A stretch of 64,000 nucleotides of DNA from Petrosia ficiformis (taxonomy: Eukaryota; Porifera; Demospongiae; Haplosclerida; Petrosiidae). Positions 25,701 through 61,110 of this stretch are shown here, one piece after another (positions within the stretch are counted from its first letter, which is position 1; every line of letters starts with the position of its first letter). A program made the translations under genes and the position numbers. The stretch lies in contig OX345636.1 of assembly GCA_947044365.1 (NCBI GenBank), positions 17,223,115 to 17,287,114 on the forward strand, given 5' to 3'. The notes under the pieces are model-generated. The model was not told where the DNA came from. It made no database searches and saw nothing but the letters and a program-made list of their open reading frames with translations.

Positions 25701-28700
25701 TTTCGATTGAAAACTGCTACACATATCAACTATGATACAAACTGGTTTATTTGTTGAGGAAGAATGGAGAAATGCGGGAAAATTATCAATGATGACGTAC
25801 AGTGTTGATTTTGTCCTCAATGCATACAGCAGCCCTTTCTTCGCATCTGCTTGGTATGATTCACAACCTTCCAAGTTTTTAATTTCAGTAGAGGTTCCAA
25901 CGAAAGATAAGAAGTCATAATTTGAATATTCTGATATGCTGCTATAGATACTGACTGAAAGCCAAGATGGTAGGAGATCTTTAATACTTTCCAGAAATGT
26001 AGTGGACAGGGAATTAAATGTGAGGAAAGTTTGAACATCATATTCATTAAAACGAATAGTCGTATTTGTCTCAGTACACTGAAATGTTTCCTTTTCACAA
26101 CTAAAACACCGCTCTGACAGTATGTCTGACATAGTTGGGAGAGAAGCTTTAAATGACGAAGAACTGCTTTGCACATCAATGCCAGATATTGAGAGGGGCA
26201 AATTTAGAGTACGACCGCCAATGAACACTACACCCTTCGATATGAACTCTGTTTCTCCCTCAGCTGAAAACCATTGACAAGAAGAGAAGAAGGAAAGTTT
26301 AGAAATACATTGTGCTGATGACATCAATAGACTGTTGCTACAGCAACCTAATCCAAGTTGACCGTCACTTAATCCCAAAGACTGGAAATAATTGTTATCT
26401 TCTTTTCCAGATGAGTCCAAGGATGTTATAAGTACTACTGAATTTTCTGGTTTACGAAAGTTATTTTTAGGTTCTATATTATAACGAACTTGAAACAACC
26501 CAGGTTCATTAGGATGTAACGTATAAACAACAGTAGTACTATCATCTGAGGGAATAAGCTTTTGAGTTTCTTCACCAACAATATTCAAGGCAGAAATATT
26601 AGTAACAGTAAGAGTGAGTTCTCGTTCAATTTGTGGCGATGAAATGATTGAAACATCGTAGTTAGTGTTTGTTCTCAATACTGGTATAGATGGTATTTGA
26701 AGAAAACTAGTTTCACATCTCTCTCCAGTATGGAATGTACCTTCACAGTCACACTGGAATCTTCCTTCATCATTAATAGAGCAAATTCCAGGAGCACAAG
26801 GATTATTGTCACATACTTCATTTTCTATAGAATTTTAAATTAAATGGATAAGCATACAGTATTTCCATTTACAGAGATTGTTACAGGTGCATAGTGCTAG
26901 CGACATTAAGGGTATTATAGATCCATAACCACATCCATACAGTGTAATAAATGAACAACCTAAACACAAATGCTATAATGCACTTAAAATATCTATAGTA
27001 ATACTTGAAACTAAACCAAGGAATCTTTTATGTAAAGTAACTGGTTGGTTATACACAATTTTACATGGCAGGTTATGAGCATATAAATACCACAATACAT
27101 CAAAGGTTACTATGGTAATCACCCACACACCATAGTATAATCACTCCAAAATTAAATTAATTTAGTTGATATTGCATACGTATAATTTTCACTATACAAA
27201 AGTATAATTATAATGGCTTCGATAACTCTGACAACATACCAATGCACACAGTTGTATTTGTCCATTCTACAGCTCCATTATCAGCTAAATTACAGGTTTC
27301 AAATGATTCTATAGAGCCTGGATCACCATCAACATGATATCCTTGTTCACATATTACTACACAACTTTGTGTGTATTCATTAAGACATGGTAGTGCAGCT
27401 AGTGAATTTTCAGGTGCAGTAAGCTGTTCACATTGTAATGGACGACAAAGAGCAATTTCCCCACTCCATGTGTGATCTGATTGACATGTACGAATGTAAG
27501 AACCAGTCAGATTATAACCAGGATCACAAGTAAATGTACAACTTTCATCAGTTATTTGAGGACCAGTACACAATATGTGACCATTCAAAATATTGGGAAT
27601 CGGTATGCAATGATCACCTGTTGAGTTAAAGAGTTAAAGGAAAATACATGACTTAAGAGATAATGAAAAGCAATTGTGTGAGTCGGAAAACAGATAACAA
27701 CATAAACTATGATTACCAATGTATTTGTCAAATTACTTTATATAATGAATTATATAATTATGAGTGCATGACAAAAAATGATATTTTTAGTACACTTGTT
27801 ACAATTATCAGTTACATCTTTCAGAGAATACCAATATAATAATGGCAGATAATGATCATTACTGATTACTGATCATATTATTAGTGCAGCACTAACAATA
27901 TATTATCCATTAGCTGATAACATATGTGAGATAGCACTACTTGTGATTATTACATTATAAAATACTACATATCACCCACTCAATACTAGCAAAAAATGCA
28001 ATAGTGGACACTTATACATAATGATGATTATTATGTGTTTATTATAATATTATATACAATATCGTTCTTGTAATTAATACATATTATATTGATAAGTACA
28101 TTGAAGGCACCTGCAGTACATACAGCATAAACCATTGTTTACAAATCTCATGACCGAGTAATATAGTCCATTTGCATAGTATAGAAACCAGTTACACTAT
28201 AATAATTATAGTCTAATATGGTTTACTGGATTGGGCTTGGTATATAGCCATTATATGTCTTCTTCTGAGAGTTATCTTATTTCATGCATAAGATGTTGTC
28301 CTTTTGGAGGTCTTGATATACATGTATAAGGCTTCTCTTTACACTTGTAATGATATTGTACCTCTTACAGTTCTATACACTGTAAAAGCAGTTGTTAAAG
28401 TTATAGTTCCGAAAAGTACTGTCTAAATGACATGAAATGGAAAAGATAACAAACTAGGACTTCTTGTAATTGGATATCACTGTAGGAACAAAGATGTTAA
28501 AGTACAATTGCCAGGTTTTTAAATTACATGTAGTTGGTTTCATTTTGTCATTTTGCCCATATAATATTACATGTTTCATATCACTTATAAAAGTAACTGC
28601 ATCTAGCCATGGCCATTTAATGGTGAAAATCTCCAGCCACATAAATTTAGCTACACTCTTTAGTTTACCAACAAATAGCATAAAAGATGTGGTGATTTTA

Positions 28701-29777
28701 ATTATTTGAGTTGGTACAAAGTATTGGTTTGGCATCATATTATATGTTACTCAAGTATATTAGTCATGCACTAGGTGAAAGCTGAAGTAAGACATGAGGT
28801 GGGTGTATATGCAATGCAATAATGATGGCATGCATGCATATGCAATAAGTGTGTGTTTGTGTATGTGCGTGCATGTACATATGTGCGTGTATGTGCGTGC
28901 ATGTACATATGTGTACGTTTGTAAATTACAATAATTACAAATAGCTTACTACATGTACATGTAGGAATCACTACTGTAATTAAATTAAAGTACAAGTTAG
29001 TAATTGCCTTACCAAAACAGGAATGTGCATCTAGTGCAAGTGTGTAGCCATCACGACACTGACAGTGATAAGAACCATATTCATTAATACACAAATGATT
29101 ACACTCAGCATTTTCATTAGCACACTCATCAATATCTGTGGGAAAACAAATGAAAACAAATTGAGCATGTTGATGTAATGTGATACAAAAGGTTAAATAT
29201 ATTATTATAGCTAATCGAATAATGTTTACATAATGATAGATTATAGCCCTAAATTTTCATGGATACAATTTCACATATTGGTGATATTCAACTATTTTGT
29301 GCTAAAATCTTCGTGTTCACCAAAAATGCTCACACGTGGCAGGCATGACCATTATTTTCGCAAATAAAATTTTCCCAGTATGTCAGTTTATACAAAAAAC
29401 TCAAAATTTATAGCCCACGAAATTTTAGGACTATAATACCGTTACTTAAAATCATACTATATGTCATATCGCCATTACAAATAAAAGAATGATGAGATGA
29501 ATGGACATTGGAATTGATTAACAAATGTTTTTTTTTCTCTTACCTATGCATGTCTTGTTATCTTCATGTGACAGAGTGAAACCACTTGGGCAAGAGCATT
29601 CAAAATATCCAGGACTGTTTTCACAAACATCACTACAGCCTGATATACCTTCAGTACATTCATTAATATCTATAAAGATAGCAATCATAATAAAAGAAGT
29701 AGCTGTGGTTATTATATTGTTTTCATTACTTTTATGGCCTGTAGGGCCATCCCTATAATTGCTTTTCCATGGGTTTG

Positions 29778-41519: not shown

Positions 41520-42500
41520 ACAATACATGACCTGGTCCTAAAGACTTAAATAAGCATGACCTTGGGCAAAACACAAAAATGCAAAATAATGAACAAAGTA
41601 AACTTATTTATATGATTTCAGTTGCATGTACATAGTTGAAAGTCCATTTCAGGGTACAATTTGATCCATACTCACAAAAATAAGTTTACGTCTGGTTTAT
41701 CCACTGGCCATACTAGTACAGATTTTTCGGTCAATTCTCTAGAATGCATGAGTAAATTTACCTATTCCAATCATTCAAGATTCAGTCACTAATTCCAGTT
41801 TATAGTTTATAATCATCAATATCAAATTATAATAGTTGACAAAGCATTTTCTGTAGGAATTCGATGAAATGGTGTGATTCATGAGTATACATGTGTGGTT
41901 TAGTATGATTGGCAAACAGTAGATCATGTTTAGGAATCACTGATTAAGGCGTTTTACATGTATTGAAGTTCTCAGTAAGTTGATCAGACTTTCTACATTG
42001 CAGTAAGTTGACAAATTGATTGTATGTGATAAGACAAAAGATTGGTACCTCCATCTCATAGTAATACCTTGGAACTCCATGTCAACAAATAATGTGATCG
42101 ACCGGTAACTTGGCAACTGTTTCACTATAATCATATAGAGTAAGCGACCAATAATCGGACGAACCCATTTTCAGACAGTAGTATTTCTTTAGGACTATGT
42201 GCTAGCCGTCTGAAACTTCACAGCATAGTAGTGTCGTCTTAGTCCTATTTGCTTGCCAAATGAGAGCTTCGAATGTCCACTTATTAAAAAGTTATGTGAT
42301 GCTAAACGAGCTGTCCGAAAACCGCATATTTCAGACAAATTTCTCAATCTCCGGACGATGCTTAAACAACAAAGAATGAAAAGAGGAATCTCGAAATTAC
42401 TTTGCTATGATTGTATCTCTATTGTTTATTCAAGGAATCTTTAGGTCTTTGTTTATGAAAGTCAGCATCACTTCACAGAAAAAAAAATACTCGAGAGTTG
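41520..42500. other. Spacer left of the composite transposon
   Basis: A plus-strand frame at 42253-42444 is not recognisable. The stretch at 42136-42480 is less AT-rich than its surroundings and contains several CGGACR words reminiscent of the neighbouring inverted repeat, but no second copy is visible. Confidence 0.35.
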
Positions 42501-42660
42501 ACAGTGTAATTGAAGTCCGGACATATCCGGATACTTCCGTTTATTGGAAATTAGAACAAGAAATAATACCACACTCCCTTAATTAAAACAAACAAAAAAA
42601 AAGACTTAAAAAACATTCAACATTGTTTCATTACATCAACAAAAAACTGTAACAGTTGAT

Positions 42661-44092
42661 TCATACTGTTTTGCTTCCACGGGCTGGTGGAGTAAACTCC
42701 AGTGGTTTACTCACTATTTCAAGTCCTCTACCTTGACAAATGGAACAGGTCCAACTTTCAGGAATAACTCTATTGATGCCAGTACAAGAAAAATGGAACC
42801 ATTTCTTACAGTGGTCACAAGATATCATGTTTAAATCATACATTTCTGGCATGTTGCAGAAACAGTATCTTTTAATTTCAATAACTTTAGATTTGGACAG
42901 AGGAACTTGTTTATGAGTTGAAGGAAATCTTTTTAGGACACCATAGGTTAGACACTTGTGTAAGTGTTTACGCATTTTATCCTGATCAAAATGTATTGGC
43001 ATCCGACCTTCGCATATTTCAAATGCAAAGGCAATTGAAAATAATCCACAGTCTAACATGCCACTTTGTTGTTGCACACCCATTTTGTGAATTTTCAATA
43101 TGGCAGAATCATCTCGAAATATTGCAGCAATCTGTAAAATCAGGTCACGTCCTAGTGTCATTGAACTGGCAAGACTATCTAGAAGATCAATCCTGCCAGC
43201 TTCTTCAGTAGAAGACACACACACCCAATGATGAGATGAACCTGAGAATGAGTTTGATAACTGAAATTAACGGAAATGAATATTCAGTTACAGTACACAC
43301 TCATAATTAAGGTGTGGTTAGTGGTGAACAAGTATAACTTTTGAATGCTAATGAAAATCTCCATATTTACAAGTACATGTACACATGACTACATGTACTC
43401 TATGTCATCTCAGCATCAAAAGCAACCTGCTTCTAATAATGGCAGGTAACACTCACAATGTCTCACATACAAAAATTGAAGTAATCCTCTGCCTAAATGA
43501 ATTAATCATCTGTTATTCAGTCATTTACATGTATATACATGCTAACTAAATGTACATGGCTAGTAGAAATTAATTGCTGGTTGTAAGGATGCATTAACAG
43601 ATAAAATTATAATTATCATTTGTATGTTCAGTTTACAGTCCAATACTCAAAATATCATGTTGAGCATACACATGCATTCTGTACTGAGTGTACTATTTCG
43701 ATTATAATTGGCTGCAAAGCAAGAGGATTTCAATAAATCTGAGCAGAGTGCCCCACCCTGATCCAGCATAAATATAACTATTATGTCAATCAAAAAAAAA
43801 ACATTTCCTTTTTTCGGACATACATGACATTGCTAGTCATTATTATAACATCAATTAGCTTTACCTGTGTGTAAAATCTGAACACCTTTATTAATAGGTG
43901 AGAACTTGAGATAAGTACTTAGAGTAGTGTCTTGAAAACCTTTAAGATGTTGAAATTGTTTAGCCAAAAGTAGTTGAGCTGCATTGATTATTGAGGAATT
44001 CAATTCTCTTCCTGAGGTCAATATATCACTATCAGCTGTAGTCAGCTTAAGCTTCTCATTCCACCACTTTGAAACAACCACTTCACAGTCAT
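42661..44092 (-). CDS. Ulp1/SENP-like cysteine protease domain fused to a PHD finger
   Basis: Exons 43865-44092 and 42661-43241 (acceptor TTCTCAG before 43241 keeps the phase). The protein reads WWNEKLKLTTADSDIL, NAAQLLLAKQFQHLKGFQ, GVQILHTGSSHHWVCVSS, LLDSLASS, GVQQQSGMLDCGLFSIAFAF: the His (HHW), Asp (LDS), Gln (QQQSG) and Cys (DCG) arrangement of C48 Ulp1-type peptidases. The C-terminus has a C4HC3 PHD finger (CFCN, CDHCKKWFHFSC, WTCSIC). The reading frame is undamaged, unlike the transposase. It could act as a SUMO/ubiquitin-like protease or a targeting module; a 5' start independent of the transposase is not evident. Ends SKTV-stop at 42661. Confidence 0.8.
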
Positions 44093-44689
44093 CTATTAAA
44101 ACAAATACTGCAATAATGCACCCTTGCCACATTTACACATTTTTCTCAATTTACAAACATGCACACAATTAAAATTATATAAACATTTGCAGACAAAATG
44201 TAATAATTAATATGGCATATATTTCACTCTGTATTGTTCCTGAGGCCTCCTGGTATAATAAGACATCAGAGAAGCAAGTAGTACATAATTAATTAAGCTT
44301 GAAAATAACATGACATCCAATAAGTGACTGATGATATAGAAAATCTTAGATCCAGTTGATTTTCCAGCAAAAGTACATACTAGGTTTAAACAAGTAAGTT
44401 TCCATGATTTACATGTGTAATTGTTACCACATCTTCTCAAGGTCAGGAAAATATTACTGTGCATGAGTTGTAAAAATTCCCATATCCTTATGACCAAAAT
44501 GTTTTTAGCAACAGCCAATTGTTATTTTTCGTCCTTGCACTTGTATGATTTGAGTATGAATACATGTAGCTCTTAAAAAGTATTAATGCTCATAGTATAC
44601 AGAGACAATTAAACAGTGGTAAGGTATACTTCTTACAGTATACAATTTACTGACACAAACAATGACAGTTTCAAACAGTGACTACTAAC

Positions 44690-45860
44690 CAGCGATTGTA
44701 GACAACTTTACAATCTTTTCTTTAACTTGAGGCTGTTTGTCACACACTAATAATAATAACAGTTATTAATAATTCAATCACAACCATCTCACTTACCAGG
44801 TTCTTTTAATTCTTTTCTTCTACGAGTGACTATAGATGACTTTACTATGTTCCCTTTAACTTGAGGTTCTTTGTCACAACCTAATAATAATAACACATAT
44901 TAATACTTCAAATGTGAGTACTTTCACTTACCAGGTTCTTTTAAATCTTTTCTTCCACTAGTAACTACAGATGATTTTAATATGTTCCCTTTAACTCGAG
45001 GTTCTTTGTCAAACAAAAACAGGTATTAATAATTCAAATTCAAATTCAAATCATATCACTTACCAGGTTCTTTTAAATCTTTTCTTCCACGAGTGACTAT
45101 AGACGACTTTACTATGCTCCCTCTAACTTGAGGTTCTTTGTCACACCCTAATAATACTAACAAAAATTAATACTTTAAATTTCAACACTGTCACTTACCA
45201 GGTTCTTTTAAATCTTGTCTTCCACGAGTAATTATAGACGACTTTACTATGTTCCCTTTAACTTGAGGTTCTTTGTCACAACCTAATAATAATAACACAT
45301 ATTAATACTCAAATTTGAGTACTTTCACTTACCAGGTTCTTTTAAATCTTGTCTTCTACGAGTAATTATAGACGACTTTATTATGTTCCCTTTAACTTGA
45401 GGTTCTTTGTCACAACCTAATAATAATAACACATATTAATACTTCAAATTTGAGTACTTTCACTTACCAGGTTCTTTTAAATCTTTTCTTCCACGAGTAA
45501 TTATAGACGACTTTACTATGTTCCCTTTACCTTGAAGTTCTTTGTCATACCCTAATTAAGTTATTAGAATTTGAAGTACATGTATTAATATATCATTATT
45601 AATAACACATAGTAATACTTCAAATTCCAATACTGTATCTTACAAGGTTCTTTTAAATCTTTTCTTCCATCATTAACCATAGGCAACTTTACAGTGTTCC
45701 CTTTCTCTTCAACAAGTGGTTCTTTGTCATATTAATAATAACATAATATAATTCAAATTCCAATTATCTCACTTACTAGGCTCTTTTAAATCTTTTCTTC
45801 CACGAGTAATTATAGACGACTTTACTATGTTCCCATTAACCTGAGGTTCTTTATTACACA
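44690..45860 (-). repeat. Tandem array of 84-bp phase-1 exons (about 135-bp period)
   Basis: Nine units of about 134-135 bp, each with an exon, AG acceptor (TTATTAG) and GTAAGTGA-like donor. Full exons: 45777-45860, 45468-45551, 45333-45416, 45199-45282, 45064-45147, 44797-44880. The last, 44690-44746, is 57 bp. Units near 45644-45730 and 44932-45010 have lost the AG acceptor. Each full exon encodes 28 residues of the form CDKEPQVKGNIVKSS-IVTRGRKDLKEP, starts and ends in phase 1, and joins in frame to the transposase exon and to the protease exon. Confidence 0.85.
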
Positions 45861-45911
45861 CTAATAATAATAACTCATATTAATACTTAAAATTCCAACA
45901 GTCTCACTTAC

Positions 45912-47724
45912 CAGGTTCTTTACACAACTTATCCTTCATTCTTTGTTTTTCTTTCTCATATTCCCTTTTTTGGGCATTTTCTTCTCTTAATCTTTTCCGC
46001 TCTTCCTTCTTCATTGCTTCTTCTTCCTTCTTTTCTTCCCTCATTCTTCTCCTTTCTTCTTTCTGAAATGTTTCTTCCTGCTTTTTCTTAGCATTTTCTT
46101 CCTTCATTCTTTTTCACTCCTCTTTCTTCCATGCTTCTTCTTCCTTTTTCTTTTCACGCTCTTCAAGTATTTGTAAACTTTCTATACTAGTTAAAACCTT
46201 ACCTGGGCATTTAGTATGCTTGGTAGGCAGTTGACTTGGAGGTGTAGGAATAACAAAAAACTTGCTTATGCTAGTACAATTACGAAATGGCATAATAAAC
46301 TGATCTTCGCTACGACTATCATCCGAAGTTTCAAGAAAAGTTTCTTCTAAAACAGATGAGCTTTGATGTGATAAAGGACTGTCAGGAACTGGATAATGCT
46401 TTGAGGGTTTTGGACTATACAGTGGAATGTAGGCTAGTCCAGATGTTTTAACTACATTCTCTGGCTGAAAATGCATGTATGTAGTGTCTTCTTGTATTGG
46501 AATTTGAACTATTGTTCTGTCAAAAGGACAGACACCAGTAGTTTTAAAACCAGCTGCAATGTTCTTCATTGTCATTGATTTATACCAGGCCTCAGAAAAG
46601 AGGTAACAAAAATCGTAACGCGTTACACATCTTCCAGGGTTTTTTACTATAAAATTATGACAGGCTTCTTTCCAGGAATACTTAAGGGGAGAAAATGGTC
46701 CTTTATCAAGAGGCTGGGTGAGATGTGTAGTATTTGGTGGAAGTGCAAATATAATAATTTTTTGTGCAGCAGCAGTACGAATCACTTCAGGACAGTAATG
46801 ACTAGAATGACCATCTAATAATAGTAAAAATGGACGTGATGAAGGAGCATAGGGTAAGAAGTGATTAAAAAACTAGTCAGAAAAGAGAGACCTGTCAATC
46901 CACCCCTTCCTGGATAAACCATAAAGGGTTCCTGGTACTTCCCCAATGGTCAATTGAGGGTTAAGAGTCTTTCTGTCAAAGATAACAAACGGTGGAATTG
47001 CATATCCAGCTGCATTAGCACAAACTAATACTGTAATTTGTGATTTAGTATCACTTGTCAAATGAGAAGGTTGTTTCAATCCTTTTTTAGAAATAACTTT
47101 AGGTGCTTTTGGACTAAGTGGAAAGCCTGTTTCATCACAATTAAAGATGTTACTAGGTTGGTTAAAAATACCATTGGCTTCAAGTGTCTCCTGTAGCATA
47201 TCAAAGTAGTTTTCTAACATGGTATAGTCTGTTGCCATTGCTCTTGCCAATGATAATGGTACTGCTGTTCGTAAAGTTAAAGACGGATGCCTTATACAGA
47301 ATCTTTCCCACCAACCATTTGAGACAATAGTATCAATACCTTTGGAATTTAAAATTTGCTGCACAAGGCTTAGTACATGCTTACGAGTGTATGGATATCC
47401 TATTGTAGCACTCTTGTCTAGAAAACTGACCAATTCTTCCTCTTCTTCAATAGTAAGGTAAGGTTTGGGGCCAGACTTTGATCCCATTTGATGCTTTCCC
47501 ACATAATGATCATGTAGAGTTGAACGTGGGACACCATACATCTCAGATACCTGCCTTAGTGATTTCCCTTGTTCAACAGCAATAACTGCCTTCTCCAAAC
47601 ATATCTGCTCATACTTTCTATAGTTTCCACGGCTGTTTGGTGTAGGGTTAAGGGTGGGAGTAGGAGTGGTAGATCGAGAATGAATGATCCGTTGATGCAG
47701 TGAAGGATAGCCATATGCATACAT
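45912..47724 (-). pseudogene. Pogo/Tigger-like DDE transposase exon, two in-frame stops
   Basis: One long exon from ATG at 47724. A psq-type helix-turn-helix (KAVIAVEQGKSLRQVSEMYG, then VPRSTLHDH) is followed by a CENP-B-type HTH (GWWERFCIRHPSLTLR) and a DDE core: FNCDETGFPL, LLLLDGHSSHY, and TQPLDKGPFSPLK supply the three acidic positions. After an 'EDTTYMHFQPE' region comes a highly charged coiled coil (KEEERRRMREEKKEEE-like). A TAG at 46873-46875 replaces what should be W in the DDE domain, and a TGA at 46114-46116 interrupts the coil. The frame otherwise stays open to the GTAAG donor at 45912. DNA-binding cut-and-paste transposase of the Tc1/mariner superfamily; inactive unless the stops are read through. 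Confidence 0.85.
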
Positions 47725-49320
47725 CTGTGAACAATTATTTAAAAGATGTTATTAAAAATGATTATATATCAGTCAATCAAACATACATGTATATACATTT
47801 CATAGAGGGGGGTGGGTAGGGTGTGGTTGGGATTTTCCACAAAGTTAATATTATAAGGCAGCTGTTAAACCATCATGTTTTTGAATATTTACACATCAGC
47901 TATAGGCTCCAGAAGCCACCACAAGAAACCCTTGACTTAAAACTTTTCATGGTGGGGCATAGCCCCTATGATAATTCACCTATGCAAATCTTCTGTTACA
48001 TATATTTCACTTATTTCCCTCAAATATACATGTATATACATGTGTGTGTGTGTGTGTGTGTGTATAATTATATATACACACACATGGTATATAATTATAT
48101 TATATATAATTATATACCATGATTGCTGAAGTCAACTATTGAAAACTCAAGTGGTATAGTCAGCATATACCACCTGTGAAACCACAAGAGGTGTATTTGA
48201 GACTGCAACAAGGTGTAAATGAGACCACAGGTGTATATCAGACTGCAAGGAGTTGTATTTATGCAGAATTTAATAATAAAATCATATTATTATGTGATAT
48301 GTCCTTTATAGCCTGTGGATGTATATATTTAACACCATCATTATAAACCTCGAATCAAAGCAAGTTGATATACAAAATATAAACCTGGTAAAAATAATAA
48401 TCATGTTTGCAACAATTAAATACCCATCTGTAGTTAATTAGAAGACTACATGGGTTAAGCACACGGTAGGTGAAATAGAATAAAAGATGCAATAATAGTG
48501 AGTCTTTTTCTAACTTTGCGCAAGTAATTATTACATGTATTAACTGATACATTGGTGAACATGAATTTGTAAGCATTTGCATATCTGAATAAAGAAGGGA
48601 GGGAGGGTTGGCCCGGATCCCACCAAAATATCATTAAACCACATTTTCAGTTCCCAAGACCAAATGGTCCTGACATCAGAGCATATGTTAGTAGTTCAGA
48701 TTGTTAAATAATTTTCATAACACTAGTCAACTCAAAAAAAGAGACACTGACAAGCATACATGCCCGGATTTAAATAGTAGGAAGGTAAAATCAATACATG
48801 GTTAGAGAATGCAGAGACCCATCGGTTGACTATAAATACTCCCAAACATATAATACAATGTACAAAATAAATTATTATAATTATTTATATATCATACCTT
48901 ATCAAAAAAAAAACAACCAACTTGAACAGAGAAGATTACCACGAGATCACAAATAAACGGAAGTATACAATATGTGTCCGGAGTTCAAGTAAAGGACTTT
49001 GACAAATAGAGTGAATCACTATATGTCGGGTGTCTGTATTCACTGGACTTGGACTATTGGACTGGACTCTAATTATTAAAAATATTTGGAGTCTGAACAC
49101 CTATCAAACTAAAACAATACATGCATTGTTTGTTTTTGTATCCAATACAAACACCCACTACCCAATAATACTAGATTGGATTAGATAAATAGGAGTGTTT
49201 GTATTCGCTGGATGTGGTATATAGCACACCTTCTTTCAAGAAAGAAGACAAGGATCTTGACTGTGCAGGTGAATATAACAAATTTTGTTTCACCAAAACT
49301 ATAGCCACATTTCAAAAATA
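47725..49320. other. Right part of the composite element and spacer toward copy C
   Basis: Holds a (GT)n tract (48040-48064), a short palindrome (about 48072-48120, ATGGTATATAATTATA arms), the right terminal repeat (48951-49001) and, beyond it, two related words (GTATTCACTGGACTTGG near 49037 and GTATTCGCTGGATGTGG near 49202). No gene is seen. Confidence 0.45.
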
Positions 49321-49649: not shown

Positions 49650-50065
49650 TCACTGGTTCCCACCCTCATCCTCTCCATTTTCATTAGGTATTTCTCCATC
49701 CATTTTGTAAAATGGATTAGTGGCATTCAGGGGCACATAGTCACCGTCACTTCTCTTGCTCTGCATTGATGTTGTGTCTTCCTTGTCTTTGACAGTAAAA
49801 GGATCGAGAGGCATTGTTGATGATTGCATAGGAAGTGCTGATGGAGTTTGGCCCTGAAGAGATCTCGGATCATCATAGCTATTCTCATTATGAGGAAGTT
49901 GCTGTAACAATTCAAGTTTACCTTTCATGTCATTATTGTTCATGTCTTCTGGGGGAAGCTTTTCATCATAGTCATGGAATTGTATTTGCTTTATAAGTAG
50001 CATTCTTCTTTTCAGTTTTCTTTTCCAGATCGTCACCACAATTATAATCACCAGTATGATCAAGA
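49650..50065 (-). pseudogene. Copy C cytoplasmic-tail exon with lost tyrosine motifs
   Basis: An open exon, acceptor at 50066, encoding transmembrane end [20 protein letters not shown] and the tail to a stop at 49650. Relative to gene B, YMNN has become DMNN, the segment carrying YESL is deleted (about 16 residues), YDVP is YDDP and YMPM is YVPL. NPFY is retained. Confidence 0.8.
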
Positions 50066-51099
50066 CTAGATATAATAGTAAACAAAAATCATTCATATTT
50101 GTGAATAATTGTAGCACTCATCATTATATGTCAGGTTTCATTAGTTGTAAATGATCTTTGTTTATACTATGCTATTATACATGTTTTAATGATTTACAAA
50201 CTTTTCTGGTATGATCAATTATATAACTTCTCATTTTCGCGTGAATAGTATTTAATATATGCTATTAATTCCTAATATCACTGCAATTACACATTTGATG
50301 CCAACAATGAAAAGCATCTCATCGCCTGATGATTGGCTGTTGTTATTGGCATCATTACATGCACGCATACAGCAGGTATAAAATCACTGCAAAGTTAATA
50401 AAGATGCATAATTATGCTAGTAATAATCATTAATAGACAGGAAGTTTTGATAATAAACAACTGCCATTCTTCCTCTAATTCCTAGTCAAGTTTTTTCCTT
50501 GTTCGAGAATTGGCTTTTGATTTTCCATTCATAATTATGTATGCCCTAAGTGAAGTGATTTTAAAGGAGCTAGAAGACACCTCCAGCTATATACAGTGCA
50601 AGTGAAAGCTAGTTATTCTAAGCAGGCAAGTCAGTTAAGTGCTTAGTTTCTGAAAGTGGTACGTTGACTGTCTAGCCTACTCTATTCATTCTGTCTTCTC
50701 TCAGCTTCAGTTATTCATAGAAGTAAGGTGTTTAATAGTATCTAAACTATATACGCCTTAAAAATTAATGGGTTATTTTAAACCTCATTTGGTTACATGA
50801 GTTTCAATACGATATTAATAATATGCTTCTGAGAATATATTGACTCAATAATTTAACAGATACAACAGATATTACAAGTACAAGTGTGATTCAAAATAGG
50901 TAACATCTGTTGTTTTCACACGTCAGAATGGGAATGATTATAATACACCACAGGTTATATATACCCGTTACTATAATTTATTGTGCCATGTAATTTCATG
51001 CTAGTTCATATAGATCGAAACTAGTATTTGTAAATATTACCTAGCAGGAAAAACAAATCAACATTGAGGAAATAAAATTGCATTGAAACTCCTGTAATC

Positions 51100-51310
51100 A
51101 ATCTAATTAACCAATCTGTGGTAGCATGCTTGCATGGTTGTGAAGTTTAGGATAAAATTCACTCATATTGCTTCTAAAGTAGCAAATGTTTACTCGGCTT
51201 TGGCTTGTGCAATTTTATCATCACATTAGAAACAACACTTGTGCAATTATGGATTACACAGAACACAGAATGAATGACTTACTCATTAGGAAGGTAGCTA
51301 TAATTACATT
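51100..51310. repeat. Local duplication of the TM-exon flank in copy C
   Basis: 51060-51250 is a diverged copy of 51306-51450, and 51275-51305 contains a fragment of the transmembrane exon with its donor (GACTTACTCATTAGGAAGG). From about 51306 the sequence switches to near identity with gene B from 19078. This looks like a junction left by gene conversion or unequal exchange. Confidence 0.65.
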
Positions 51311-52597
51311 GAAACTCCTGTAACCAGCTGAAGTGTAATTAATCTGTGATTGCATGTTTAGTTGTGAAATGTAGGATAAATTTAACTCATGTTGTTTCTA
51401 AAGTGGCAAATTTTTACTAGGCTGTACCCCATCCACCATGTACTTTAGAAACAACACTTGTCTGATTTATCCTAAATTCCAATCCCCACCCATGCTATTA
51501 CAATACAAATACGAACAATGAAAGCATGGAAATAAATTTGAACGGTCCAATAAAGCCATGGTTTACAAGTATAGTCTTTGATCAAATAGATCCAGTATTT
51601 GAATTAATTCTACTAATATTAATTTTAGTAAATGGCACACCCTCAATTTCATATATGATAATTGTTTAGCATGATTATAAATGTATTTTGGATTAAACAG
51701 AACACAGAATGAATGACTTACTCATTAGCAAGGTAGTTACAATTACGGGAATTATCAAAGTGAAAGTATTTCCTTCTGATTGCTAAGTTGAAGAAATTAG
51801 ATATTGGTGACTGAAAATACAAACCAAAAAGCTTAGCATGACTTGTTACTTCATTGATGCATGTAATGAACTACTACCATACCTTGGACACTACTGAAAT
51901 TGAATTGATGGAGTTACAGAAGCCGATTCAGAAATGACAGCTACATCTGAAAGTATTACAAAATGGTATATTACACTTCAATACATACACCACTGACTAA
52001 ATAATTAGTAAATAAACTGACTTGTTGTTGTAGTAGTAGTTGCCTCCACTAGTATCATACATTCATCCAAAAATGATGTTTCATTTGTACAAAATGAGCA
52101 TTCACTTGAACCATACTCTGTTTGGTAGTGAGTTGGTGGGCACTGGGTACAAGGTTCCATTCCAGTGTCAGAATATGTATTTGGTTGACACAAAGCTATA
52201 TATGTATTTAGTGGAAAAGTGAATACATGACTACTACCATTATTTATTAATGCACAAATGTTTTACATTATAATAAATATTATTTGTATATACCTGTGCA
52301 TTCTTCTAGAGATGAAGCTCCGATATCAGCTGTGCTGTAGTAATTGGGACATTGTTTACACTCAGCTTCACCCTTATCATTTTGATACATTCCTATCGGA
52401 CACTCCAAACACTGAGGAATCTGTTCTTCCATGAACTGTCCATTACCAAGATCAGTAAGTTGATCCACTAGTACATTACCATAATAACCAGGGGCACAAC
52501 CAACTGTGAAATGAAGTGAATTTAAACAGTGAAAAACATATGCATAATGACAAGAATAGATCTCATAGTGAACATTGATATATATTTCTCTACTAAC

Positions 52598-55500
52598 CAC
52601 AAATGACAAGGCTTGAATCCACTTGGTATCCATTAGGGCACACAAACACTCGAGGGCTAATACTCAGGCTATTTCCAACAGAGCGGAAGTTTAATCCACT
52701 GATACTCATTACGATGCCACCTTCTTCAGATGTCAAATTTATCAAATTATTTCTATCTAGCTGAAGTTGTATTACTAAATGTCCTACTTTTGAGAACACT
52801 TCCTGCATACTATCGTAGGCAATATACTGAACATGAGGTGTCATCAACTTGAATGAAACAGTGATATTAGAATTGCTGTCACTAATTAGTTCTACCTCTC
52901 GGATTTGAGTATATGTCGGCTGCAGAGAATTGTGAATGGTATCGGCTACCATTTGCTTATAGTCAGATCTGTTGAAGTCTATACCAGCTGCAAGAGAAAT
53001 GTCAAAATCTGGAGTAAGACGAATACTCATAGAATATTCAATTCTTGCTACAGAAGCTGGTAACACTGTAAGGTATGTAGGTTCTGAAGAGACATTACCA
53101 ATCCAGTTATAAGCCATACATGTATACCAACCCAGAAAGCTTTGGTTTGTCTAGTGAAAGTACATTAGCATCCACATCTACAATTTCTGTCCATTCATCT
53201 GTGTTCATAGCTCTGTAGAACCACCTCCAACCAGGAGGAGGCCAGGAATGAGCATCACAAGCCAAACTCAAACCATTGTCATACTCCTCAAATGTTTCTA
53301 CTGAATTCACAAGGCTGCGATTGAGGATTGGTTGATAATAGACATTAACAATTGTTGGAAGTGATGTTGCAATGCCAGAATCACTTGTGACAGAACAGCT
53401 ATAATTACCTCCTTCTGATCTTTGTATATTTTGGACAGAAAGTGTATTTGAACTTGAACTTAGCAGCATTGAGTTCCTTCTCCAATGATACTGTACTGGA
53501 AGGTTTGAGGATGCACTGCAGGATAACTCCAATGTATCTCCTATTGAGATATTCAACTCAGCTGGAGGTTGTTCAATGATCTGCGGAGGATCAGAGCACC
53601 AGTATTCAAACCCTTGAAGATCTGACAAAATTTCCATAACCTGTGAGAGAATGGTTTGAGCTAGATGAAATGTGTAGCTTTCATTATAGCCTAGCTCTAG
53701 AAAACTCTCTTTCCCTGCTGTAAGTTTTCGTTGAAGAGATTTTGCCTGTGGTAGCGGGGTATCTTGAATAATAAAAAGGAGAGCCTCAAATGCTGATTGC
53801 AGGCAATCAATAAAACTAACACATGAGAAGCCACCAACATCACTGCCATTTATATGTACCATTTCCATATTGGTTTGCCAATGAGAAAACGAATTTTCAT
53901 CAAGTGTTTCTAATAATTTGGTTATGGAAGATGATTTGTCATTTGTAAGTTGTGTATATGAATCAACTAATTCTGAAAAGAATTCTAAGTTCTGTTGCTG
54001 ATTAGTAAAATTGTTGTAATTAACAGAACTATTATTAAGCACATCAAAGAAACTATTTTTGGTATTTTCAAACTGCTGTGACGACTCATTAAGCGATGCT
54101 GAAATCTGTTGAATATAGGATTCAATGTTGGCTGTATTAATACATGTGTTTGAAAAATTGTCATTATATTGCACTGTCTGTCTTTTGCGAGATGACACGT
54201 CACTCCCTAAAATATCTTCCAGAATTGCCTCTGCTAGTCTACGGTATATAAACTCTTCAGGTCTGTTAAAGTTGATAATGATGTTGATTTCATATGATTG
54301 ACCTGCATACTCATATATAAAATTAACAGGGAAAGCAATGGGTGTTGATATGGTTAAAACAGTAGTGAATGTTACATTTTTTATGTCTACAATATTTTCA
54401 GAGTCACTTAAACCACCTACTCCATCAATGATAGGATCGAAAAAGTTCGTTTCTTGTAACACTTTCTCTTTGGCCTGTTTTTTGATATTCAAGTTTATGT
54501 ATGTACTTTGAAGTGCATTGTCAATAATTATATATTCTTGCTCTACTGCTTGTAGCTTTGTATATATTCTTGTCATTTCAACCTCAGAGATGGTGAAATT
54601 TGCTTTTGCATCATTATAGGCTTTATACTTCAGAGAAAGACTGATTTCTAAATTTGCTAAAGCCTCTTGGATTTTCTCTTGGCACTCCAAATTATTTATC
54701 AAACAGCTAAGATTTTGAACACGCTCACTGCATGGATATTCCATACAACACTCACCTGAGACTGGTTGTTCATATACATTGGTTGTGCAAGGCTGTTTCA
54801 TAATCATTGTATAGGCTTCATTAGAGACATAAGTTTCTAGACGATAATCTGCAAATGGTACACATTTGGTTGTACAGCAATCACCAAGTGATATATAAAA
54901 TACTGAAAACCATCGGAATGTCAAACATGGCTTACAACGAAGTTCATATCTCCAGCCCCTAACAGGTATTTCACGATTACGCATTACTGTTTGGTAACCA
55001 CTGACAATTGTCTCCCAGATGCCTGATTCTTCTAAACGAGAAGGGCTATAGCATGTTGAACAGCTTATACCACGTTGACACAAATATGCACATTCTGTTT
55101 CAGTACATATATCATCCGAAGACAATGAATTACTTTGTGCATTTTCATATTCTTCTTTCGTTTCAGCCATTTTCATTTTCCAGTAAGTGAATGTAGCATT
55201 AGCTTGCTCATACTGTTGTAGAAGATCAGCATATTCCCTTTGTTTGCCATTTAATTCTGTCTCGAGTTTGTTTTTCCTAATTGCAGTGCTATTTATACTT
55301 TCTTGTGCATTCCTTCGTCTTTCCAAAACCCTATTAATTTCTGATCTAACATGTGAATTCAAATAATCAATGGAATTTGTTCGGAATCCATTGGCACCAT
55401 CCATTATCTCAGCTGATATATCAATGTACATCGAGTCATCAGTTGAAGATTCTCCAGAAAACATGATATCATATTGGTAGAAAATAGTAGTACTGCCTCT

Positions 55501-56012
55501 GAACGAGATCCAAGGGCTATTAATTATCATGTCTGTGCTTACCTCAGAATCAAAAATGGAAACATTAACATTCCTTATTATACCACTAAATTGTGATGTT
55601 TTGGAACTGAATATTAGTTCTAATATTGTCATATCAGGATCATCCGAAACTACTTGAAAGAAATTACCAAAATTGGCCTTTGGTGACTTCAGCTTCGAAT
55701 ATATGACAATACTAGTTCCAGGATCTGTTTCTTGTTGAGAAATCAACCCTGGAAAATAAACAATGTACCTGAAAGTGTCTGGGAGTTCTAATTGTCCAAT
55801 TCTTAATCCAAGACAATCGCTAGTAAGACTAATATTGTTAACATTGAGCAAATTGTCTACACTCATGAAACCATCGATGGCACAATCATTCGAATAGTCA
55901 TGTTCCACAAACAGTGCTAAGAATAATGCTGCATCTGGGTAAGGAACTGCTTTGTATGTAAATTTAAAAGACATTCCAGGAGGTAATGAAGAACTCTGAA
56001 TTGTTGATACAC
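52598..56012 (-). pseudogene. Copy C giant exon, frameshifted in Ig2
   Basis: 3,415 bp against 3,420 bp in gene B. The frame is open from 56012 through the coiled coil, cysteine region and Ig1, to about 53132, where 5 bp are lost next to the Ig2 strand that should read DEGWYTC. The frame then ends within a few codons at 53107. Coding quality on both sides is high, so the lesion is young. Confidence 0.85.
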
Positions 56013-56948
56013 CTGCATTGGTAAAGAATTAATGGAATATTTAACCCTCATTTGGATTTCAATATGATATTAACAATAGACTATACTGTTTGCCTTTCTT
56101 GCTGGGAAATATATTCAAGTAGTATATTATTCCTTTCAATCTTGTCCTATATTGACTATATAGTATACAAGGTATATGCCCTAATAATGGTATCAAAAAC
56201 AATACACTCATATAGTATGTAAATCCCATACTAACTACAAATATCTCTCTGACTTTTCAAATATCTGATGAGTATGACAGATTTTATTTGTTATTATACA
56301 TAATTACAAATTCATGTACATACTAATTACTCTGGAATGAGAATGTAACATCTGCTAGATGTTAGAATGGGAATGATAATAATATATATAGCGCAGGGTG
56401 TGCCTATAATACTATAATGCCTATAATGTTGTGTATATTACTACATTGTATTAATATGTTTTAATCATATGCTTTATTATAACATGTAATTTATATACTA
56501 GTCAATATAGATTTAGATCAAACATGTCAATATTACCTAGCAGGGTAAACAAATCAGCATTGATGAAAAATGAAAATACAATTACATTGAAATTCCTATA
56601 TACAACTGAAGGTTAAAATAACGCATTACATTTTACAGTTTGTCGTAATAGAATTAATCAGTGAGGTAATGACACATCCCATTCGTTAATCAATCAATGA
56701 ATTGCACATACTATTTGTTTATATTTAAACAGCCAATAAAACTTACGGAATGTATCTAATTACCTGGAAATGTAAAGAGTGAGTTCTTTCCTTGTGATGA
56801 TAAATGAAGTCCCACTTGTCCATTATCTACAATTGTGGAAACAATTACACTAATATTTCCAGACACTAATCCTGGTACCTACAATGTATGCGAGTAAATG
56901 AATAATAATTTATTATACTGTAACAGACTAAGGAATTAATAAACTTAC

Positions 56949-58341
56949 CTTTCCTTTATCAGGTTGAGACTCTCAAATCATTACCAACAAATTTCTTTTC
57001 TAATTTCATCTCCACTTTAAATTCAAATTTTGGAATTTGAGCTGTAAAGTAAGTATCACCATGCCAGTACTTGGAATCTTTAGATCGAATATAATTTCCT
57101 CTCTCTGTAAATGTGATAGTTTTAAATGAGACTTGCCCATTATTTGTAAGAATTTGAAAATATGGAAGTCCAGTCAATTGTGATGGTTGTAGAACAGGCG
57201 GAACCATGAAATACAGTTTCGACTGAAAACTGCTACACATATCAACTAAGATACAAACTGGTTTACTTGTAGAAGAAGAATGGAGAAATGCAGGAAAATT
57301 GTCAATGATGACGTACAGTGTTGATTTTGTCCTCAATGCTTACAGCAGCCCTTTCTTCACATCTGCTTGGTATGATTCACAACCTTCCAAGTTTCTAATT
57401 TCAGTAGAGGTTCCAACAAAAGATAAGAAGTCATAATTTCAATATGCTGATATGCTGCTATAGATACTGACTGAAAGCCAAGATGGTAAGAGATCTTTAA
57501 TACTTTCCAGAAATGTAGTGGACAGGGAATTAAATGTGAGGAAAGTTTGAACATCATATTCATTAAAACGAATAGTTGTGTTTGTCTCAGTACACTGAAA
57601 TGTTTCCTTTTCACAACTAAAACACCGCTCTGACAGTATATCTGACGTAATTGGAAGAGAAGCTTTAAATGATGAAGAACTGCCTTGCACATCAATGCCA
57701 GCTATTGATAGGGGCAAATTTAGAGTACGACCACCAATGAATACTACACCCTTCGATATGAACTCTGTTTCTCCCTCAGCTGAAAACCACTGACTAAGAA
57801 GAAAAGAAGGAAAGTTTAGAAATACATTGTGCTGATGACATCAATAGACTGTTACTACAGTAACCTAATCCAAGTTGACTGTCACTTAATCCCAAAGACT
57901 GGAAATAATTGTTATCTTCTTTTCCAGACGAATCCAAAAATGTTATAAGTACTACTGAATTTTCTGGTTTTCGAAAGTTATTTTTAGGTTCTATATTATA
58001 ATGAACTTGAAATAATCCAGGTTTATTAGGATGTAACGTATAAACAACAGTAGTACTGTCATCTGAGGGAATAAACTTTTGATTTTCTTCACTGACAATA
58101 TTCAAGGCAGAAATATTAGTAACAGTAAGAGTGAGTTCTCGTTCAGTTTGTGGTAAGGAAGTGATCGATACATTGGAATTAGTATTTGTTCTCAATACTG
58201 GTATAGATGGTATTTGAAGGAAACCAGTTTCACATCTCTCTCCAAAATGGAATGTAATTTCACAGTCACACTGGAAACTTCCTTCATCATTAATAGAGCA
58301 AATTCCAGGAGCACATGGATTGTTGTCACATACTTCATTTT
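56949..58341 (-). pseudogene. Copy C EGF plus unique ectodomain exon, broken
   Basis: Homologous to gene B exon 12. The EGF module ([18 protein letters not shown]) is intact. Frameshift near 57795, TAT-to-TAA stop near 57340, and a deletion near 56970 removing the segment before the donor. Confidence 0.8.
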
Positions 58342-58724
58342 CTAAAGAATTTGAAATAAAATGAATAAGCATAGGATATTTCCCTTGCAGAGATGGTCAT
58401 GGGTGCATTATGCTAGAGATATCAGGGTATTATAATGCATCCATACAGGGCAATAAATGAACAAACTAAATACAAATGCTATAGTGCACTTAAAATATCC
58501 ATATTAATACTTGAAACTAAACCAATTAGTCTTTTACATAAAGTAATTAACATCTACTGGTTGGTTATACACATGAAATTTTCCATGGCAGGTTATGGGC
58601 ATACAATTACCACAATACCCAAAGGTTACCCTGGTAATCACCCATGCACCTTGGTAAAATCCCTCCAAGAATTCTATATCAAGTATTATATTTTCATGCC
58701 TATGATAACTTTTTGACAACATAC

Positions 58725-59106
58725 CAATGCACACAGTTGTATTTGTCCATTCTACAGCTTCATTATCAGCAAAATTACATGTTTCTAATGATTCTATATA
58801 TAGAGCCTGGATCACCATCAACATGATATCCTTGTTCACATATTACTACACAGCTTTGTGTGTATTCATTAAGACATGGTAGTGCAACTAGTGAATTTTC
58901 TGGTGCAGTAAGCTGTTCGCATTGTAACGGACGACAATTTGTAATTTCCCCACTCCATGTGTGATCTGATTGACATGTACGATTGTAAGAACCAGTCAAA
59001 TTATAACCGGGATCACAACTAAATGTACAACTTTCATCAGTTACTTGAGGACCAGTACACAATATTTCACCATTCAAAATATTGGGAATCAATATACATT
59101 GATCAG
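58725..59106 (-). pseudogene. Copy C CCP exon with 4-bp insertion
   Basis: Two CCP modules homologous to 27240-27617. A TATA insertion (CTATATATAGAG against CTATAGAG in B) near 58797-58803 shifts the frame in the second module. Splice sites are preserved. Confidence 0.8.
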
Positions 59107-59109
59107 CTG

Positions 59110-61110
59110 TTGAGTTAAACAAAAATACATGAGTTAAGAAATGGTGAAAAAGTGATTGTGTCCGTTGAAAAACAGATAAACTATGATAATTATCTCTATG
59201 TCAAATTACTTAATGAATTATATAATTATGAGTGCAAGACAATGTCTCTCAGATCTGAGAGCAATTTACAACATAAATACATAATCACAAATATTATTTT
59301 AATTTCAGTCATAATAGTCATATTTTGTCAATTTAGTCTTCGTATATGTTTAGTCTTTGACTATTATCACATATACTACAATAACACTAATTGCTTAAAA
59401 TAAAAAAGATTTTTTTGATAATTATTATGATAAACCAATAATTACTCTATAGATATGTACTAATAACCGGTATCAATTCAATATTACACTTACATTCTTG
59501 TGCCGTATTCTTTCTATGAAAATGATTATTTACTCAATAATTAAATATGAGTATCATAAAAGCAATTAATGATGTTATAATCACAATAATGTCATTATCC
59601 ATACACTTATTACAATATTCATTACATCATTCAGAATTAATACTAGAAATTAAGCGGATCTAGCCTCGAAGAGTATCAGTGTTCTTAACAATAATGTTAA
59701 TATGACAGGGGGTCTGAGAACATACTCCCCCAGGAAAATTTTGACTTTTGACCTGAAAGAGGCCAATATGATGCAATCTGAGAATAAATTTACGGTTTGG
59801 TGCATTGACAACAACATAATACATTGTATTATATCGAATCCCTATGATTGCTTTGTGATGTCCAACATTTAGTAATCATGACTCACTTTCTCATGCCTGA
59901 AACACAACAGCCTACCATGGTTAACGTTATTATTTTGAGTATCTACACTTCTTACTTATTAAAGGATCTTGTAGAAGTTTAGAAATATTATTCACATAGA
60001 ACAGCTATTATAGTTCCAGTTTCTGTGCAAACTACAAGCATTTAGCCTTCTTCCCGCTGGTCTGTAGCACGAATGTGTGTTCTTTTAAGCATCGTGTCCA
60101 GTAATTGACCAAGCACCCAGAATGACACAATGAGTATGCAATTTTCTTAAAGCCAGTGATAAGTAAACGTATAGTTTATAAACTGTTTATATGCCTACTG
60201 TAGTGAAAATAATAATTTTACTTTTAGCTAGGAGGTTCTGGAACCCTTGGAACCCCCTCTGGATTCGCCATTGCTAGAAATAATGGCTGATAATTATCGA
60301 TAGTGATTAACAATCATATTATTGCTGCATTACTATAACTATAACAATAAACTATGCATTTGCTGGTAACATTTGCACTAATTATCAACTACTATTTCAA
60401 CCAGTCTGTGGTGTCTAAAAAATTATGTAAATATATATAATATAAATTATATATAATATTAATTATACACAACATTGTCTTCATCTCACCCAGATTCATG
60501 AGTAGCATGGCTATAACAAAGAGATAATATAAAGAAGACAATAACTGCATACGCATTTTGTCGAAGATTCCAGAAAGTTTTGTATCTTAGACGCTTTGTT
60601 TCTTGGGCCTCGTCGTAACAAGTGTTTCTGCAGCTATCTGTGAAGTCTTGTCACCAGTTCTGAGGAGATATGAATTTGAGTTGATGAGGAATGCCATGAC
60701 TCCCTGTTTCATTATTGATTGTTTATGCTGAGAAGCATACATTCATAGAAGCATCTTTTTAGCGAGGGTTCTGCACTTTAGTGCATTCATATTATACATT
60801 GTAGTAGACCAAAATACTCGAACATAATGAATAGATGAAATAGAAAAAAGCACTGTTTGTGTTTGAACTAAAATCAAAACATTTTAAAAATTGTCACAAA
60901 GGAGTTGACGCATGATGAAACTATTTATGACTCTATGTTCATAAAATCTATGGCACAGTCTATATGATGAGATAAAACAACTTCCAATGTAAATGCAAAT
61001 TTGATCATTGAATTCAAAAAATGTGGAAATAGTCTATCCTACTATAGTGCATATAGAAACAGTTTCTATTGCTGTTGACAATTACCCTTTTTATATCACT
61101 GGCAAACAAG
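59110..61110. other. Region upstream of copy C without receptor exons
   Basis: The first 500 bp resemble receptor introns. About 59653-60280 may be an inverted-repeat element (GCGGATCTAG on the left, CTGGATTCGCC on the right). The segment at 60530-60680 reads, on the minus strand, TGDKTSQIAAETLVTTRPKK with later stops, perhaps a transposon exon remnant. About 60790-60880 is shared with 3210-3320. The five EGF exons expected here are absent. Confidence 0.4.

What the first reader, a model, noticed from the sequence alone, without database searches (positions are those of the whole stretch)
42502..49001. Pogo-type transposon that has absorbed a Ulp1-like protease and a PHD finger
Matching inverted repeats enclose, on one strand and in compatible splice phase, a psq/CENP-B/DDE transposase, a repeat-exon array, a C48-type protease with its His/Asp/Gln/Cys set, and a C4HC3 PHD finger. 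Ulp1-like proteases are known passengers of some Mutator, CACTA and other elements. A pogo-type element ending in Ulp1 plus PHD is not an arrangement I know. PHD binding to histone tails together with SUMO-type proteolysis could steer insertion or counter silencing (inference). The protease frame is clean while the transposase has two stops.
Basis: partly seen in the sequence, partly recalled or inferred. Interest (0 to 1): 0.9.

Follow-up and report, generated by a model that had tools for sequence, protein, structure and literature searches.

The report
Pogo transposon with SUMO-protease and PHD
This is a damaged copy of a pogo-type jumping gene, probably from a sponge, whose intact copies seem to join the DNA-cutting enzyme to a SUMO-type protease and a histone-reading finger, a combination that could let the element handle its host's chromatin.

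Summary
The core finding holds; the boundaries do not. The window carries a pogo-type (HTH_psq/DDE_1) transposon with Ulp1 (C48) and PHD exons on the same strand. The repeats taken as termini (42502-42545 and partner ending 48988) are inner repeats. The true left end is 42138, after TA, and begins a ~339-bp terminal inverted repeat (TIR); the right TIR is missing from this copy. Ten same-family places carry the left/Ulp1 part. In 7 of 7 copies with both TIRs found (at least four distinct sites), the TIRs enclose transposase and Ulp1-PHD. Two full-length copies (7,620 and 7,625 bp) give a predicted, unverified spliced product of 1,097 aa: transposase, K/E-rich stretch, 28-aa repeats, Ulp1, PHD. 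Genome-wide, 34 of 128 transposase-like places have a same-strand Ulp1-PHD match within 9 kb downstream (0.41 expected). Four of six related elements tested have long TIRs with TAGAGT tips around both parts. A related copy's protease models as a SENP/Ulp1 fold; the PHD is nearest to H3K4me3 readers. Ulp1+PHD cargo is already reported in Ginger1, so this is a new variant of a known kind. Single-polypeptide, targeting and anti-silencing readings are inference; no RNA was available.

The parts
42136..42137 (.). TA target dinucleotide at the left end
   Evidence: TA flanks 8 of 8 left ends located (of 10 looked at) and 6 of 6 right ends located (of 8 looked at)
42138..42474 (.). left terminal inverted repeat (3' end of the gene); its right partner is missing in this copy
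   Evidence: homology to other copies starts at 42133-42136 in 7 of 8; left and right TIR of the copy at C1:33.9 Mb align 287/339
42661..43241 (-). last coding exon: C-terminal part of the Ulp1 protease plus PHD finger, then stop
   Evidence: Pfam C48 and PHD; acceptor and phase (exon edge read from the sequence)
42736..42864 (-). PHD finger
   Evidence: Pfam PHD, residues 126-168; PHD in 7 of 7 sequences
43003..43233 (-). Peptidase_C48 C-terminal match; His at 43228-43230, Asp at 43177-43179, Gln at 43066-43068, Cys at 43048-43050 (positions worked out by hand)
   Evidence: Pfam, residues 3-79; alignment
43865..44092 (-). exon with the N-terminal part of the protease
   Evidence: 39-48% identity to 5 of the 7 related elements; acceptor, donor and phase (edges read)
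44700..45860 (-). array of repeat exons; six units of exactly 84 nt with clean sites, others of other length or with altered sites
45912..47724 (-). transposase exon from ATG to splice donor, with stops at 46873-46875 and 46114-46116 in this copy
46546..47046 (-). DDE_1 domain (two Pfam pieces); spacing DD35D by my own count
47275..47598 (-). HTH_psq (47494-47598) and HTH_Tnp_Tc5 (47275-47448) DNA-binding parts
48944..48988 (.). inner repeat at the 5' side of the gene; the window copy leaves the family sequence at 48988, so 374 of the last 400 bases seen in other copies are missing

Best explanation
It is a damaged copy of a cut-and-paste transposon of the pogo kind with long TIRs at TA sites. 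SHOWN: in other copies the TIRs enclose a pogo-type transposase and, downstream on the same strand, a Ulp1/SENP-type protease with a PHD finger; the same order recurs in several diverged families of this genome; two full-length copies have splice motifs and phases that give one uninterrupted 1,097-aa frame. INFERRED, likely: the transposase exon is spliced through the 28-aa repeat exons to the protease-PHD exons, so one polypeptide cuts DNA, removes a ubiquitin-like protein (probably SUMO) and reads a histone tail. INFERRED, less sure: the PHD docks the complex on H3K4me3-type chromatin while the protease strips SUMO from the transposase or from silencing factors, favouring expression or insertion in open chromatin.
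Against: No transcript seen. A stop lies just inside the first intron, so the transposase could be made alone, and an AATAAA lies shortly past the transposase exon. In a within-family pair dN 0.031 and dS 0.024 show no constraint (one of the two is a decayed copy). 94 of 128 transposase-like places have no same-strand downstream Ulp1-PHD match within 9 kb, so pogo elements in this genome may do without it. The fold is as close to NEDP1 (a NEDD8 protease) as to SENP1. PHD binding is by resemblance only.
Confidence: 0.7

Rival explanations
1. Two proteins from one element: the transposase is made alone (first intron retained) and Ulp1-PHD is a separate helper from another promoter or an alternative transcript.
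For: Stop just past the first donor; AATAAA/ATTAAA words between transposase and Ulp1; separate ORFs are the commoner layout of transposon cargo (recalled).
Against: In two copies the transposase frame runs open into a splice donor, not to a stop, and all phases fit to the PHD stop; Ginger1 cargo is described at the C-terminus of the transposase (PMC2836005, passages).
Confidence: 0.22
2. Passive cargo: a captured Ulp1-PHD gene rides along and does nothing for the element.
For: Within-family dN about equal to dS in one pair; transposons do capture host sequence (PMC13317346, passages).
Against: The module is kept, with invariant Asp, Gln, Cys and PHD ligands, in seven sequences from six families 34-50% identical to the window protein; dN/dS about 0.13 in one pair; it recurs with pogo and in Ginger1.
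Confidence: 0.12
3. Neighbours by accident: a separate Ulp1-PHD element or host gene lies beside or inside a pogo element.
For: The genome has Ulp1-PHD-like places without a pogo transposase match nearby, one of them 2.3 kb downstream of an integrase zinc finger.
Against: Same order, strand and enclosing TIRs in 7 of 7 two-ended copies at no fewer than four sites and in related elements.
Confidence: 0.02

Closest known systems
pogo superfamily (IS630-Tc1-mariner group), Fot-like or Passer-like
   Same: HTH_psq and DDE_1 domains, DD35D by my count, TA target, TIRs
   Different: 7.6 kb against 1.2-5.2 kb, and a predicted 1,097 aa against 300-977 aa, in the 2020 survey; that survey ties very long TIRs (392-856 bp) to insects; Ulp1 and protease do not occur in its main text (PMC7386202, section 8 and passages)
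Ginger1 transposons, notably Ginger1-9_HM of Hydra
   Same: Ulp1 and PHD at the C-terminus of a transposase, inside TIRs (PMC2836005, passages)
   Different: Gypsy-integrase-like transposase with H2C2 finger, not a pogo DDE_1; listed Ulp1-plus-PHD member is 3.8 kb
Mutator-like elements with Ulp1 (Kaonashi/KIU, Vandal) and Crypton elements with C48
   Same: Ulp1-type cargo in DNA transposons; KIU-carrying Vandals are described as inducing hypomethylation of related copies (PMC13317346, passages; PMC3212892, passages)
   Different: Other transposases or recombinases; PHD does not occur in the text of either paper; the role of Ulp1 is called unknown there
SENP/Ulp1 proteases and H3K4me3-reading PHD fingers of host proteins
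   Different: 12-19% identity to those proteases; here joined to a transposase

Membership tests
pogo superfamily | DDE_1 transposase with HTH_psq and/or HTH_Tnp_Tc5 | tested here: met
   (HTH_Tnp_Tc5 below cut-off)
pogo superfamily | TA (or TAA/TAAA) target duplication | tested here: met
   TA at 8 of 8 located left and 6 of 6 located right ends; both ends of two full-length copies
pogo superfamily | terminal inverted repeats | tested here: met
   339 bp, 85%; absent on the right in the window copy
pogo superfamily | place in a tree with named pogo families | not tested
   no reference tree was built; closest named proteins are Amphimedon 'tigger transposable element-derived protein 2-like'
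Peptidase C48 (Ulp1/SENP) | C48 profile match | tested here: met
   window exon above cut-off; only 1 of 7 family sequences at E 0.01
Peptidase C48 (Ulp1/SENP) | His-Asp-Gln-Cys set | tested here: met
   Asp, Gln, Cys invariant in 7 of 7; His in the 5 of 7 sequences that cover it and in a separate exon of a sixth; roles recalled
Peptidase C48 (Ulp1/SENP) | SENP/Ulp1 fold | tested here: met
   modelled on a related copy (L085), pLDDT 87.6
Peptidase C48 (Ulp1/SENP) | activity on SUMO | not testable with these tools
   needs an enzyme assay; NEDP1 is as close
H3K4me3-reading PHD finger | C4HC3 PHD | tested here: met
   7 of 7
H3K4me3-reading PHD finger | cage residues of PHF2-type readers | tested here: inconclusive
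   Met and Trp invariant, first aromatic Tyr/Phe/His; PHF2 best match; cage assignment recalled
Ginger1 | Gypsy-integrase-like transposase with H2C2 finger | tested here: not met
   Pfam on the window transposase shows DDE_1 and HTH domains only

The most novel reading that the evidence does not exclude
A lineage of pogo transposons encodes one polypeptide that cuts DNA, reads H3K4me3-type chromatin with its PHD and strips SUMO from itself or from silencing factors, so the transposase brings its own chromatin targeting and anti-silencing tools; and the Ulp1-PHD cassette is shared between unrelated transposon superfamilies (pogo here, Ginger1 elsewhere).
Probability: 0.3. Interest if true: 0.8.

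Novelty: new variant of a known kind. Interest (0 to 1): 0.6.

Why it matters
Ulp1 and OTU cargo recurs in unrelated DNA transposons, and what it does for them is not known. Here it sits in the pogo superfamily, probably in one chain with the transposase and a histone-reading finger, in several diverged families and with full-length copies in a well-assembled genome. That makes an old question directly testable: mutate the protease Cys or the PHD cage and measure excision, insertion and site choice. The repeat of the Ulp1-PHD pairing in pogo and Ginger1 also suggests either exchange of a cassette between transposon superfamilies or convergent gain.

Tried and rejected
A plasmid-collection search with the transposase gave no match. 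Pfam C48 as a genome-wide query was too insensitive: 11 places. Agreement of transposase and Ulp1 identities (Mantel r 0.94, 21 of 720 permutations as high) rests largely on one close pair among six elements, so I do not lean on it. No clear SUMO-interacting motif was seen by eye in the 28-aa repeat. A short non-autonomous form was looked for: no two ends lie close together, but counts are lower bounds and four places have a single end (window copy, C1:24.21, C1:24.51, C1:0.61 Mb). One of six related elements (C7:2.76 Mb) gave no TIR pair and one (C2:14.35 Mb) a pair without tips. Two same-family-like transposase DNA fragments (C1:13.33 Mb at 86%, C1:28.43 Mb at 78%) have no Ulp1-PHD match within 9 kb. 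Whether pogo relatives at 45-50% identity truly lack Ulp1 was not settled. Ten paper searches listed no title or abstract start describing a pogo element with Ulp1; they cover open-licence PMC papers only, few were opened, and Repbase could not be searched. The best match in the viral fold library is an unnamed entry and was not pursued.

Rows dropped before counting: one search used 128 of 135 rows and 137 of 150 rows; the 7 and 13 dropped rows are further pieces of places already listed. Two of the 34 paired transposase places (both C7:2.76 Mb) share one Ulp1 place, so 33 Ulp1 places are involved. Read by eye, add two pairs (C8:2.22 and C8:2.25 Mb) and one PHD-only pair (C1:24.69 Mb), not counted in the 34.
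Full report
What the window is. It lies in a 191-Mb, 29-contig genome at G000:C1:17223115-17287114. Transposase relatives include Amphimedon queenslandica proteins at 55-56% identity, so a sponge is likely (inference). Around the element lie duplicated genes with Ig and Sushi domains.

Checking the observation. On the minus strand the two transposase pieces match HTH_psq and DDE_1 and the 3' exon matches Peptidase_C48 and PHD above Pfam cut-offs; HTH_Tnp_Tc5 is below its cut-off. The repeat array, the two transposase stops and the open protease exon are as described. In an alignment of seven sequences (six families, two being near-identical copies of one) the Asp, Gln and Cys and the PHD ligands are invariant; the His is present in the five sequences that cover it. 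Pfam finds PHD in 7 of 7 and C48 in 1 of 7 at E 0.01.

The ends. The left/Ulp1 part matches ten places (12 rows), the right part nine. Six right ends were read out and end in GGTCGCTTACTC before TA. The left end is TA then GAGTAAGCGACC. TA flanks 8 of 8 located left ends (10 looked at) and 6 of 6 located right ends (8 looked at). Left and right TIR of the copy at C1:33.9 Mb align 287 of 339. The window holds no right TIR: 374 of the last 400 bases are missing.

What the ends enclose. A tip pattern with up to 2 mismatches gives 16 tips, against 0 for the reversed control; the left TIR gives 19 places. Together they mark seven copies with both TIRs, about 6.5-7.6 kb apart: C1:33.9, C1:50.85, C10:2.33, C10:2.36, C1:0.22, C1:63.2 and, with a shortened left TIR, C1:0.16 Mb. 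All seven hold transposase and Ulp1-PHD matches inside. They are not seven independent insertions: the two on C10 share both flanks, and those at C1:0.16, 0.22 and 63.2 Mb lie in similar tandem repeats, so I count at least four sites. Four places have a single end: the window copy, C1:24.21, C1:24.51 and C1:0.61 Mb.

Full-length copies and the gene. Of nine transposase copies tested, two (C1:33.9 and C1:50.85 Mb) have a frame open from ATG into the splice donor, with the first stop two codons inside the intron; six have earlier stops and one lacked the start motif searched for. Both are full length (7,625 and 7,620 bp, TA on both sides), and joining the predicted exons gives 1,097 aa without a stop: transposase, K/E-rich stretch, eight 28-aa repeats, protease exons, PHD. 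Only exact 84-nt repeat exons were joined, so the true product may be longer. The window copy has six such exons, so the number varies. AATAAA lies about 116 nt after the stop; other AATAAA/ATTAAA words lie inside the element, one 57 nt past the transposase exon. Splicing is a prediction: no RNA was available.

More than one family. Of 128 transposase-like places, 34 have a same-strand, downstream Ulp1-PHD match within 9 kb, against 0.41 expected for uniform placement; 3 more have one in another order or strand. By identity to the window protein: 9 of 9 at 85% or more, 0 of 2 at 60-84%, 21 of 40 at 50-59%, 3 of 28 at 45-49%, 1 of 15 at 38-44%, 0 of 34 below 38%. Of six related elements whose two sides were fetched, four have inverted repeats of 323-404 bp (71-98%) with TAGAGT tips around both parts (two of the four are copies of one family), one has a 308-bp pair without tips, one none. 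An ancestor of these families probably already carried the module (inference). One pair of related copies has dN 0.019 and dS 0.152 in the Ulp1-PHD exon; a within-family pair has dN 0.031 and dS 0.024, no sign of constraint.

How it probably works. Shown: architecture, ends, recurrence, open frame. Inferred: cut-and-paste at TA, splicing into one chain, docking on active chromatin by the PHD, removal of SUMO from the transposase or from silencing factors. A precedent for an anti-silencing protein with Ulp1 is the KIU of plant Vandal elements, where the role of Ulp1 itself is called unknown (PMC13317346, passages). The Ginger paper proposes help with DNA repair (PMC2836005, discussion section read).

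Comparison with the known. The transposase fits pogo by domains, TA and TIRs; no tree was built. In the superfamily survey elements are 1.2-5.2 kb and transposases 300-977 aa, and Ulp1 and protease have no occurrence in its main text (PMC7386202, section 8 and passages); a second pogo survey has none for Ulp1, protease, peptidase or PHD (PMC7325037, passages). Ulp1 plus PHD is listed for Ginger1-9_HM; Ulp1 or C48 is reported for Mutator and Crypton elements. Hence a new variant of a known kind, not a new kind.

Noticed in passing
G000:C1:16557945-16560919 (outside the window): An integrase H2C2 zinc finger in a 736-aa open frame lies 2.3 kb upstream, same strand, of a Ulp1-PHD match: perhaps a Ginger1-like element with the same cassette in the same genome.
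   Followed up: partly
G000:C1:43529627-43532573 and C1:4817155-4819506 (outside the window): An H2C2 finger and a MULE transposase match each lie about 2 kb upstream, same strand, of a protease-part Ulp1 match.
   Followed up: no
44700-45860: Repeat-exon array whose 84-nt, phase-1 units change in number between copies (six clean units here, eight in each of two full-length copies) and would keep the frame; role of the 28-aa repeat unknown.
   Followed up: partly
17784-29256 and 49650-59200: Tandem-duplicated genes with Ig and Sushi domains (EGF-like parts by eye); the transposon lies between the two copies.
   Followed up: no
G000:C1:161686-168665, C1:218761-225313, C1:63225931-63233087 (outside the window): Three copies lie in similar tandem repeats near both ends of the 63-Mb contig C1, which suggests subtelomeric duplication.
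   Followed up: no
P0011 (Chaenocephalus aceratus, 216 aa) and P0044 (eukprot, 267 aa): Relatives of the module outside this genome: the icefish protein has C48 and PHD, the other a C48 match just under cut-off.
   Followed up: partly
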